Assembly: GCA_934647195.1 (NCBI GenBank)
Contig: CAKUFD010000003.1
Coordinates: 62,001 to 126,000 of the forward strand
Length of the DNA: 64,000 nucleotides
From: an uncultured Collinsella sp.
GTDB lineage: Bacteria > Actinomycetota > Coriobacteriia > Coriobacteriales > Coriobacteriaceae
Direction: 5' to 3'
The position numbers were made by a program, and so were the translations under genes. Positions 13,845 to 55,719 of the stretch are shown here, one piece after another. Every line of letters begins with the position of its first letter. Positions within the stretch are counted from its first letter, which is position 1. The notes beneath the pieces were generated by a model. It did not search any database. It was not told the origin of the DNA and was given only the letters and a program-made list of their open reading frames with translations.

Positions 13845-15932
<2,088 letters not shown>

Positions 15933-15960
15933 TCTTGGCTGAGTTGCCGAGGTAGATGAT

Positions 15961-15994
15961 AAGGAGCCCCGTTTGACGCGGGGCTCCTTTTTTG
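15961..15994 (+). terminator. Rho-independent terminator of glnN
   Basis: Perfect stem AAGGAGCCCCG/CGGGGCTCCTT with a loop of a few bases and a T6 tail, 28 nt after glnN. It also lies 42 nt beyond the end of the convergent surface-protein gene, so it may serve both. Confidence 0.93.
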
Positions 15995-16036
15995 TGTTGC
16001 GGAGATGCTGATGGGGTTGCGGACGTTACCGCGTGA

Positions 16037-52667: not shown

Positions 52668-53951
52668 ATGTCCCTTTCCGTACAAAAGGCTCTTGAATCC
52701 AACTACGTGATGCATACGTTCGGCCGTTCCGAGGTCGAGTTCACGGGCGGACACGGCATGACGCTCGTGGGCGACGATGGCCGCGAGTATCTCGACTTCC
52801 TGGCGGGCATCGGCGTATGCTGCCTGGGCCACGGCGCCCCTGCCATGGTTGATGCCGTGGACGCACAGGTACATGACCTCACCCACGTGTCCAATTACTT
52901 CTACATCGAGCATCGCGGACAGGTGGCGGCGCTGCTCTCCAAGCTCGCCAATGACGATCTTGCTGGTGCCGCCGCAATTGTCGAAGCCATCGATGCCAAG
53001 GACGACGAGGCCCTTCTGGCTGCCGCCGCACCCGCCGAGGGCGAACAGGTTTGGCAGGCGTTCTTCTCCAACTCGGGTGCCGAGGCTAACGAGGGCTCGA
53101 TGAAGCTTGCGCGCCTGTATGCCAAGCGCGTGGGCAATGGCGGCAACACGATTGTGGCGCTGCGCGGTGGCTTCCATGGCCGAACGCTCGAGACGATCGC
53201 CGCAACTATGCAGGATTGGCTGCAGGATAGCTTCAAGCCGTTGCCGGGCGGTTTTGTGGCTTGCGACCCCAACGATGTCGAGCAGCTCAAGGGCATTTTC
53301 GATACGTATGGATCCGAAATTTGTGCCGTGATGATCGAGCCGATTCAGGGCGAGTCTGGCGTGCATCCGCTTACGCAGGAGTTTGTCGAGGCCGCACGCG
53401 ACTTGGCCCATGCCCACGGTGGCCTGCTCATCGCCGACGAGGTTCAGACCGGTATCTTCCGCTCCGGTAAGCCGTTTGCCATGCAGACCTATGGCGTGGA
53501 GGCAGACATTATGAGCCTTGCCAAGGGCGTCGCCGGCGGTATGCCGATGGGTGCCGTGCTTGCTAAGCAGGAGGTCGCGAGCGCGTTCCGTCCGGGTGAC
53601 CATGGTTCGACCTTTGGTGGCAGCAACCTCGCGGTGGCTGCTTCGGCTTCCGTTTTGTCCGAGCTCGTCCGTGGTAACTATGCCGCCCATGCAGCCGAGG
53701 TTGGCGCATACTTTGCTGAGCAGCTGGCCCAGGTGCCCCACGTTACCGAGGTGCGCGGCTGTGGCCTGATGCTTGGTTGCGATTTGGATGACACCGTGGG
53801 TGACGCACACGATGTTGTTGCCGCAGCGCTGGCCGCCGGCTTTGTGATCAACGCGACCGGTGCGCACACTCTGCGCTTCTTGCCGCCGCTTGTCTGCGAA
53901 AAGGCCGATGTCGATGCGCTCATCGCTGCTTTGACGAAGATTATGGGGTAG
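52668..53951 (+). CDS. argD: Acetylornithine aminotransferase
   Basis: PLP-dependent class III aminotransferase, 427 residues. FFSNSGAEANEGSMKLAR (about 125-142), GGFHGRT, LLIADEVQTGIFRSG (about 255-269), and SLAKGVAGGMPMGA with the PLP lysine (about 284). The region around residues 85-115 has an insert (DDLAGAAAIVEAIDAKDDEALLAAAAPAEG) not usual in short ArgD forms. Last gene of argCJBD; a terminator follows. The remaining arginine genes (argF, argG, argH) are not in the window. Confidence 0.95.
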   Translation: MSLSVQKALESNYVMHTFGRSEVEFTGGHGMTLVGDDGREYLDFLAGIGVCCLGHGAPAMVDAVDAQVHDLTHVSNYFYIEHRGQVAALLSKLANDDLAGAAAIVEAIDAKDDEALLAAAAPAEGEQVWQAFFSNSGAEANEGSMKLARLYAKRVGNGGNTIVALRGGFHGRTLETIAATMQDWLQDSFKPLPGGFVACDPNDVEQLKGIFDTYGSEICAVMIEPIQGESGVHPLTQEFVEAARDLAHAHGGLLIADEVQTGIFRSGKPFAMQTYGVEADIMSLAKGVAGGMPMGAVLAKQEVASAFRPGDHGSTFGGSNLAVAASASVLSELVRGNYAAHAAEVGAYFAEQLAQVPHVTEVRGCGLMLGCDLDDTVGDAHDVVAAALAAGFVINATGAHTLRFLPPLVCEKADVDALIAALTKIMG

Positions 53952-54027: not shown

Positions 54028-54119
54028 TTGTTTCAAGGCCCACGTATAATGCGACCGCCCTTGAGCTGCGTTCACCTTAAAACCCATGCGCAATGTGGCT
54101 GCTCTCGAGCTGTCTTTCC

Positions 54120-54187
54120 AAAACCATCGCACAAACGTTCACTTTTCCTTATTTTTCGGAAATAGTTGCCGTTTGTGCGATGGTTTT
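54120..54187. repeat. 68-nt palindromic repeat, copy 1
   Basis: Arms AAAACCATCGCACAAACG and their exact complement enclose a 32-base centre that has its own TTTTCC/GGAAA arms. Identical to 55365-55432 over all 68 bases. It lies downstream of both argD and the nuclease-like gene and could fold as a strong hairpin in either transcript. Confidence 0.9.
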
Positions 54188-54207
54188 ATAATCGAGGGCG
54201 CACCCAT

Positions 54208-55257
54208 CTACGATGCCGATGCTTCTGCGCGGGGATTATTCTGCGTCGAGGGTGCTCCTTCTGCGTTCGCGTCATCGTCTTCCGGTGTTTCCCATTTTCG
54301 GATTACGAACTTTCGCAGCTCGTTTTGTGCCTTTTGGAACTCAGCAGACGAGTTGATGCTGAGGCCGAGGGTTTGACATATGGCATTGAGAGAACGATTC
54401 AAGCTGAGCTGCGAGGAGAATTGCGCCGCTGTAATCGTTTGGGTTTGATAGCCCATTAGGCGCAAGACGCTCAAGCGCTCGGCATCGTGTGCTCGTCGAA
54501 GAAATTCATTGTGATACTGCCCGTCGTATTCGATAGCAAAACGCTGCGTTTGGGTCAAAATATCGATTTCAAAGTAACCATTCGCAGAGCATTTCTTGTG
54601 TTTGAGGGGAATATCAACGCGCTTGTTAAGGTCGAACGACTTGAAACCGAGGCCCCCGCGCGTTCGATCTTCCGCAAGCATCATCGCGAGTGCGGTTTCC
54701 ATGGGCGATCTTGAGTTGTTTTTCGCCATGCGTAGGACTCTGCGGGTTTGCTTTATTCCCTTCGTGCTCGGATGGCTTTTGGCGGCTTCGCGCAGGTGTT
54801 GGACGTTGTCTAATGAGACGAGCTTGGTGTAGCCAGATTGATTTTGCTGCGGGCCTAGGTAATTTCCGCAGAGCTCGTAGGCAAATTCAAGTTGTTCATA
54901 TTCATTCATCCATGAAGCGCTTTGGAGGAAGCATAAAGAAGGGTGGACAACTAGGAGTCCGGGTGCGATGGAGACGAGCTCGTTTGCCGGGATGATTGCG
55001 CCGTAGGAATGGGGGCGGAAAGCGGACGAGCGGGTTCGCTCGGATGGAAAAGAGATGAGGATGTCGAGCTTATCGAGCTGATTATCGTTAACTCCGCACA
55101 TAGTGAGCGTTTGCCGAATGGATTTTGCGAAAGACATGGGTGTTCTTCGCGCGGGAGCGAGCGCGGGGAGATCTCGATCCTCGCCTAGAGCATTCGGGCC
55201 GGAGACCTGGTAATACAGCCATGCCGTCTTATGTGAAAGGACGATAGGTGCATCCAT
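54208..55257 (-). CDS. DUF559-like PD-(D/E)XK nuclease-domain protein
   Basis: 349 residues. The N-terminal ~170 residues are unassigned (MDAPIVLSHKTAWLYYQV, reminiscent of AbiEi-like proteins in Actinobacteria). The C-terminal part has a Vsr/DUF559-type nuclease core: Glu187 (SPMETALAMML), Asp232 (GYFEIDIL) and Glu243-x-Asp245 (RFAIEYDGQYH), with a final helix-strand unit (LMGYQTQTI). ATG 55257 has AGGAGG upstream. Its base composition looks more AT-rich than its neighbours. It stands alone between two identical 68-nt palindromes, a layout like a mobile or phase-variable cassette. No methylase or partner toxin is adjacent. A defence or housekeeping role is unproven. Confidence 0.75.
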   Translation of the reverse strand: MDAPIVLSHKTAWLYYQVSGPNALGEDRDLPALAPARRTPMSFAKSIRQTLTMCGVNDNQLDKLDILISFPSERTRSSAFRPHSYGAIIPANELVSIAPGLLVVHPSLCFLQSASWMNEYEQLEFAYELCGNYLGPQQNQSGYTKLVSLDNVQHLREAAKSHPSTKGIKQTRRVLRMAKNNSRSPMETALAMMLAEDRTRGGLGFKSFDLNKRVDIPLKHKKCSANGYFEIDILTQTQRFAIEYDGQYHNEFLRRAHDAERLSVLRLMGYQTQTITAAQFSSQLSLNRSLNAICQTLGLSINSSAEFQKAQNELRKFVIRKWETPEDDDANAEGAPSTQNNPRAEASAS

Positions 55258-55364
55258 GGGGCCTCCTGTAGTTTTACTGCAATTATCTCTTATTTGGTGG
55301 CACAAATGGTGCGCGGAGCGCCCGTGGAATGCTACTGACTGGCTTGCTGGGTGTTCGGTAATTC

Positions 55365-55432
55365 AAAACCATCGCACAAACGTTCACTTTTCCTTATTTT
55401 TCGGAAATAGTTGCCGTTTGTGCGATGGTTTT
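55365..55432. repeat. 68-nt palindromic repeat, copy 2
   Basis: Identical to copy 1 at 54120-54187. It lies about 110 bases upstream of the nuclease-like gene start and just before the GC-rich element next to tRNA-Val. Not at the end of any transcription unit except possibly on the tRNA side, so it is unlikely to be only a terminator. Confidence 0.9.
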
Positions 55433-55476: not shown

Positions 55477-55588
55477 GCGTGCGGCTGCGCCGCCCGCGCC
55501 CCGCTGCGGCGCGTCCCGCGCCTTGCGCGCTGCGCCGGAAAACGCCTGCGCGTTTTCCCGGCTCCGCGCCCTCCCGGGTTCGAATCCC
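55477..55588 (+). repeat. GC-rich structured element, copy B, ending in a T-arm-like sequence
   Basis: About 112 bases, close to 90% identical by eye to 20072-20181. Same three hairpins (GCGGC/GCCGC, GGCGCG/CGCGCC, GGAAAACGC/GCGTTTTCC) and the same terminal GGGTTCGAATCCC. It lies beyond the terminator of tRNA-Val, mirroring copy A and tRNA-Glu. Confidence 0.7.
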
Positions 55589-55643: not shown

Positions 55644-55719
55644 TGGTGGGCGATGAGGGATTCGAACCCCCAGCCTTGTGCGTGTAAAGCACCTGCGCTA
55701 ACCGTTGCGCCAATCGCCC
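55644..55719 (-). tRNA. tRNA-Val (anticodon UAC)
   Basis: Minus-strand cloverleaf: acceptor GGGCGAT/ATCGCCC, anticodon loop TTTACAC between GTGC/GCAC (anticodon TAC), T-arm GGGGGTTCGAATCCCTC and encoded CCA. Followed by a terminator. Confidence 0.94.

What the first reader, a model, noticed from the sequence alone, without database searches (positions are those of the whole stretch)
54120..55432. Nuclease-like gene bracketed by two identical 68-nt palindromes
A solitary PD-(D/E)XK (DUF559-like) gene sits inside a 1.18-kb segment flanked by direct repeats that are identical over 68 bases. Each repeat is an 18-bp perfect inverted repeat (AAAACCATCGCACAAACG) with an inner stem. Copy 1 is downstream of the gene and copy 2 is upstream of its promoter side, so termination cannot explain both. 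Direct repeats around a nuclease gene of AT-richer composition could mark a self-mobile or recombination-deletable cassette, a nuclease recognition/homing site, or an autoregulatory hairpin pair.
Basis: partly seen in the sequence, partly recalled or inferred. Interest (0 to 1): 0.75.

Follow-up and report, generated by a model that had tools for sequence, protein, structure and literature searches.

The report
Nuclease gene between twin DNA palindromes
A lone gene for a probable DNA-cutting enzyme in a gut bacterium lies between two identical hairpin-forming repeats, and many related genes in the same bacterial class lie between their own, differently spelled repeat pairs that can be found deleted, inverted or scattered singly, so enzyme and hairpin may form one little-known selfish genetic unit.

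Summary
In detail: two identical 69-nt palindromes (54119-54187, 55364-55432) bracket one DUF559/Vsr-fold nuclease gene (54208-55257, minus). It is not a local oddity. Paired repeats flank the gene in 22 of 24 homologous loci found in species-level genomes (one pair partial), and in 37 of 92 non-redundant families against 3 of 64 control ORFs. The palindrome differs between subfamilies but is shared within a pair, and stems show compensatory changes. At one site of related genomes, 11 have the cassette, one has it with an inserted IS, and one has a single palindrome and no gene. Another subfamily's cassette lies one way round in five genomes and inverted in situ in four. Solo palindromes lie elsewhere.

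Best reading: a REPtron-like unit in which a Vsr-fold nuclease, not an HUH transposase, is paired with a private palindrome that serves as a recombination point. That the nuclease cuts the palindrome, and that the unit moves itself, is inferred; host recombination could explain deletion and inversion. I found no description in the open-access searches made.

The parts
54208..55257 (-). nuclease gene, 349 aa, DUF559/Vsr-like domain at about residues 182-299; the only long gene of the cassette
   Evidence: ORF, Pfam, AlphaFold2 model and VIA-align, dN/dS 0.105 against L001
54119..54187 (.). palindrome copy downstream of the gene; outer stems 54120-54137 and 54170-54187
55364..55432 (.). palindrome copy upstream of the gene; outer stems 55365-55382 and 55415-55432
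55258..55363 (-). 106-nt leader between upstream palindrome and ATG, with an AGGAGG motif at 55262-55267; presumed to hold the promoter (none was found by the sigma-70 consensus scan)
   Evidence: sequence, comparison with L001, scan

Best explanation
A single-gene, palindrome-bounded cassette that works like a REPtron but with an unrelated enzyme: a Vsr-fold (DUF559/MTES_1575) nuclease paired with its own palindrome. SHOWN by sequence: the gene-between-two-repeats anatomy recurs across part of the gene family with a different palindrome in each subfamily; stems are kept by compensatory change; in several lineages the two copies of a locus change together; full, single-palindrome and inverted alleles exist among relatives; solo palindromes occur elsewhere in related genomes. 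INFERRED: the nuclease recognises its palindrome (as duplex or as an extruded hairpin or cruciform) and nicks or cuts it; repair from the other copy homogenises the pair, deletes or inverts the cassette and, rarely, copies the cassette or the palindrome to a new place.
For: Paired repeats in 22 of 24 loci. 37 of 92 non-redundant families exceed the 99.9th percentile of 8372 cross-locus pairs, 22 of those 37 palindromic at p<=0.005; 3 of 64 control ORFs, Fisher p 1.8e-7. Compensatory stem changes: 13 cells against 3.5 in shuffles, 0 of 500 as high. Pair changing together in window against L001 and in L006. Single-palindrome allele in G040, gene absent. In-situ inversion, 5 against 4 genomes. 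Solo copies. Window-site element found only in window and L001 while tRNA-Val and argD-like flanks lie close together without it in others, e.g. G009 and G006. Vsr/homing-endonuclease fold, catalytic-type residues conserved, purifying selection.
Against: No cutting or binding is shown. 55 of 92 families lack such repeats at the threshold, and 15 of the 37 that have them are not palindromic by my test. In L008 the two copies are only 83% alike. The cassette keeps one site within the aerofaciens-like group, so movement is not seen directly. Host recombination between near-identical repeats would give the same deletion, inversion and homogenisation. Solo copies are few and at conserved sites; no clean empty site for a solo copy was found. 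Two of the five covariation measures were not exceptional (pairs with two-sided change 37 of 500 shuffles, further pair types 175 of 500).
Confidence: 0.5

Rival explanations
1. Passive repeats: the palindromes serve the gene otherwise (two-sided insulation, transcript ends, protection of mRNA) and the rearrangements come from the host's ordinary homologous recombination; the nuclease does not act on them.
For: Homologous recombination between repeats suffices for the single-palindrome allele of G040, the inversions (the palindromes are in opposite orientation in 7 of 9 genomes) and pair homogenisation; solo copies, more distant and 77-89% alike, do not follow the pair in G006.
Against: Does not explain why repeats of unrelated sequence bracket this gene family (37 of 92 against 3 of 64) or why each close subfamily has its own palindrome; no terminator-like T tract.
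Confidence: 0.22
2. Domesticated house-keeping pair: the nuclease binds or trims its palindromes around the genome for regulation or DNA repair and is no longer, or never was, mobile, as proposed for REP transposases.
For: One close-subfamily gene per genome; purifying selection; solo copies at conserved sites; stable site within species groups.
Against: Broken genes in G017 and G026 and loss in G040, G025, G032 and G041 with solo copies kept argue against an essential role.
Confidence: 0.2
3. Defence or toxin-antitoxin-like cargo (AbiEi/DUF559 kind) carried between recombination hot-spot repeats.
For: B-type palindromes also flank a variable stretch with a small antitoxin-like ORF (my reading by eye) in six of six regions whose ORFs were listed.
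Against: No PADLOC hit; no AbiEi model among the Pfam hits; a general hot spot would not predict a private palindrome for each subfamily.
Confidence: 0.08

Closest known systems
REPtron: RAYT/TnpA-REP gene with cognate REP palindromes (PMC8266576 abstract and introduction; PMC3733652 passages)
   Same: One gene, usually single-copy, beside or between its cognate palindromes; solo palindromes elsewhere; enzyme and palindrome thought to co-evolve; gene mobility not seen directly.
   Different: RAYTs are HUH tyrosine transposases acting on single-stranded 20-50-nt REPs, most with a GTAG tag, in hundreds to thousands of copies. Here: Vsr-fold nuclease, 62-77-nt palindromes, no GTAG foot, a few solo copies.
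Homing endonuclease I-Bth0305I (EDxHD, Vsr-like; PDB 3r3p)
   Different: No detectable sequence relation (one search lists only 3hrl, E 0.28). Here the gene is free-standing between palindromes; homing is not shown.
Vsr-like DUF559 protein VsrA of Caulobacter (PMC12907096 passages)
   Same: DUF559 domain and predicted Vsr likeness.
   Different: Proposed there as a mismatch-repair endonuclease tied to cytosine methylation; no palindromes in the passages I saw.
TIRtrons: tyrosine transposase genes between terminal inverted repeats (PMC3733652 passages)
   Same: Some DUF559 genes of the wider family lie between long inverted repeats (L045 361 bp, L021 187 bp).
   Different: Different enzyme class.

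Membership tests
REPtron / RAYT | HUH (Y1) tyrosine transposase | tested here: not met
   Pfam hits are DUF559 and MTES_1575 only for the window protein; no transposase model among hits of 43 members
REPtron / RAYT | gene flanked by cognate palindromes | tested here: met
REPtron / RAYT | GTAG tag at the foot of the palindrome | tested here: not met
   read from the sequence at both copies
REPtron / RAYT | high copy number of dispersed palindromes (hundreds or more) | tested here: not met
DUF559 / Vsr-like nucleases | family model over its curated cut-off | tested here: met
   DUF559 23.3 bits, cut-off 20.6; MTES_1575 20.8 bits is under its cut-off of 38.2
DUF559 / Vsr-like nucleases | Vsr-like fold | tested here: met
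Homing endonuclease gene | cleaves the allele that lacks the gene and is copied into it | not testable with these tools
   a single-palindrome allele exists; cutting untested
Homing endonuclease gene | insertion disrupts its own target | tested here: not met
   if the palindrome is the target, both copies are intact around the gene
Intrinsic terminator pair | T tract after a GC-rich stem | tested here: not met
   neither palindrome is reported
AbiEi-type antitoxin proteins | AbiEi domain | tested here: inconclusive
   no AbiEi model among Pfam hits at E<=0.1 for 43 members; the likeness of the N-terminal SHxTA motif is recalled

The most novel reading that the evidence does not exclude
A class of selfish elements, widespread in Coriobacteriia, made of one Vsr-fold nuclease and one private palindrome, in which the nuclease acts on the palindrome to move, delete, invert and seed it: a route to REP-like repeats without an HUH transposase, and a diversified natural set of nuclease/target pairs.
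Probability: 0.35. Interest if true: 0.85.

Novelty: new variant of a known kind. Interest (0 to 1): 0.7.

Why it matters
DUF559 is still a domain of unknown function in Pfam. A recurring tie to a private, fast-changing palindrome gives many of these proteins a testable substrate. If confirmed, REP-like palindromes can arise with an enzyme unrelated to RAYT transposases, and the family offers natural enzyme/target pairs for studying how a nuclease and its DNA site evolve together.

Tried and rejected
A pattern with the window palindrome's 13-bp arms (loop 15-45) had no exact match in genome contigs or viral contigs: the sequence is private to the window and close kin. A pattern-based scan of viral contigs found no relative of the gene. 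At the site of window and L001 the insertion could not be defined to the base, because flanks have diverged. Joined flanks of solo site D2 gave no clean empty site: genomes listed with both flanks side by side have about 66 nt between them (the palindrome), G018 has 4.4 kb. Homologues on metagenome contigs of 1.23-1.28 kb first suggested many copies; rejected, since assembly breaks at near-identical repeats explain that length. A DUF559 search over 119 genomes drawn from the phylum met 8 and was not followed. NCBIfam and PADLOC gave nothing useful. The class-level script held duplicate loci, so its control is unsafe; one search replaces it. Among the 37 families, L233 and L236 are not palindromic and may owe their repeats to tandem copies; I did not check. 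The loci clustered were the window, L001-L074 and L218-L246, L258-L297; L075-L217 (other flanks, solo copies, extra copies of the same subfamilies) were left out. Control ORFs were long ORFs chosen by script from the window and from L117, L122 and L125, which are orthologous to each other and so not independent.

Papers: PMC3733652 passages, PMC8266576 abstract, outline and introduction, PMC12907096 passages; all others search listings only. That the system is not in print rests, of an open-access library only.

Full report
1. What is there. Two identical 69-nt copies of a long palindrome lie at 54119-54187 and 55364-55432. Both are predicted to form very stable hairpins on either strand (z -9.5 to -10.7, 0 of 200 shuffles as stable in each of four foldings). 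Between them is one gene, minus strand 54208-55257, 349 aa, with AGGAGG just upstream. The palindromes lie 20 nt beyond its stop codon and 106 nt before its ATG. The segment is AT-richer than its surroundings. Neighbours are an aminotransferase-like gene (52668-53951; the name argD is recalled) and a tRNA-Val at 55644-55719. No second copy of palindrome or gene was found in the window.

3. The anatomy recurs. A scan of species-level genomes returned 24 loci, all from Coriobacteriia. In 22 of 24 the gene is flanked by a pair of repeats: L001-L020 and L024, at 37-84% identity to the window protein, with pairs of 62-77 nt and start-to-start spacing 1239-1451 (L007 shows only 24 nt, at a contig edge), and the more distant L021 with 51 nt. 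L022 and L023 show none. The palindrome sequence differs between subfamilies. In 92 non-redundant families (75% aa clusters), 37 have flanking repeats, direct or inverted, above the 99.9th percentile of 8372 cross-locus pairs, and 22 of the 37 are palindromic at p<=0.005; 55 of 92 do not pass. Among 64 control ORFs 3 pass, all at one orthologous place beside a solo palindrome; Fisher p 1.8e-7, approximate because controls are partly orthologous. Some relatives have long inverted repeats instead (L045 361 bp, L021 187 bp). In a sample of the class, 46 of 119 genomes hold a family member at E<=1e-25.

4. The stem is kept as a stem. In 20 palindromes of the A-type (the subfamily of L009), picked by me for variety, 96.5% of cells pair, 13 cells have changes on both sides (3.5 in shuffles, 0 of 500 as high), and slid structures pair in 29-49% of cells. 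Two further measures are unremarkable: pairs with two-sided change (4 against 2.2, 37 of 500) and further pair types (8 against 7.2, 175 of 500). Related rows inflate such counts.

5. The pair changes together, in part. The window copies are identical to each other and 87-90% alike to those of L001. The copies of L006 (G006) are 91% alike but 73% and 65% alike to their counterparts in L009, while gene and flanks there are 83% and 88-89%. The three solo copies of G006 examined keep stems of the common type. L008 is a counter-example: its copies are 83% alike, each with its own matched stem change.

6. Alleles. Joined flanks of the A-type site were searched in 43 genomes of that genus. Thirteen have both flanks on one contig in the listing: 11 with 1305-1311 nt between them (the cassette), G035 with 2820 (cassette plus an IS) and G040 with 69 (one palindrome, flanks intact). 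Others show only one flank or a different context, for instance G025 and G032. G040 has no A-type gene at E<=1e-40 other than a distant paralogue. A flank tree of 11 tips puts G040 beside L014 (support 0.97) among cassette-bearing tips; unrooted, it does not prove loss. The A-type gene is in two frames in G017 and has a stop in G026. For the B-type subfamily (L051), flanks of nine genomes show the whole cassette one way round in G006, G017, G011, G026 and G027 and inverted in G009, G025, G023 and G015, flanks matching at 89-99%. The two palindromes there are in opposite orientation in 7 of 9, so recombination between them suffices.

7. Sites and solo copies. A-type cassettes share one site in the aerofaciens-like genomes; window and L001 (Collinsella bouchesdurhonensis) share another. 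The two sides of the window's site lie close together in other Collinsella, for example 41 nt apart in G009 and 462 nt in G006, genomes in which the window palindrome has no match at E<=1. So among the genomes held this insertion is specific to the lineage of window and L001. Solo palindromes exist: A-type at two sites a few to 20 kb from the cassette and one or two elsewhere, 77-89% alike; window-type, two in G001 at 81-84%; B-type, several. G025, G032, G040 and G041 keep A-type solo copies without the A-type gene.

8. Reading. The nearest working model is the REPtron, a mostly single-copy REP transposase gene with cognate palindromes, proposed to be domesticated and without evidence of gene mobility (PMC8266576 introduction; PMC3733652 passages). 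Here the enzyme is of another fold class, the palindromes are longer, the GTAG foot is absent and solo copies are few, so it is not a member. Most likely the nuclease acts on its palindrome and repair of the break yields the alleles seen. That step is inference. Host recombination explains deletion, inversion and homogenisation as well, but not why such pairs go with this gene family or why each close subfamily has its own palindrome.

Noticed in passing
L125 1249-2767, L170 3163-4596, L105 2775-4285, L007 start: Near-identical IS copies (98-99% alike; Transposase_mut family in L105) sit inside solo palindromes of G023 and G009, each with an 8-bp duplication, and about 10 nt from a cassette palindrome in G035; in G007 the upstream palindrome meets what looks like the same IS end at a contig edge. 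The IS may favour palindromes.
   Followed up: partly
L171-L175, L180: Two B-type palindromes flank a stretch of variable length with a small antitoxin-like ORF at one conserved place, in six of six regions whose ORFs were listed.
   Followed up: partly
window 55477-55588: A tRNA-3'-end-like stretch with GC-rich hairpin arms just beyond the upstream palindrome matches many places per genome in other Collinsella (query 245-356), so it seems to be a dispersed repeat family.
   Followed up: no
L122 beside solo sites A and B (about 5600 and 15900-16030): A second, short REP-like palindrome with a GGGGACAGG core recurs beside solo copies.
   Followed up: no
L045, L021, L235: Related DUF559 genes lie between long inverted repeats (361, 187 and 137 bp), more like classical terminal inverted repeats.
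   Followed up: no
L056 (G009), 121-nt repeats: A distant family member has 121-nt flanking repeats whose end sequence is scattered elsewhere in aerofaciens-like genomes.
   Followed up: partly
P0002-P0004, P0039 and others: At least ten of 99 homologues have a longest contig of 1.23-1.28 kb, about the cassette's length, as expected if assemblers break at the repeats; one cluster has 28274 member sequences.
   Followed up: no
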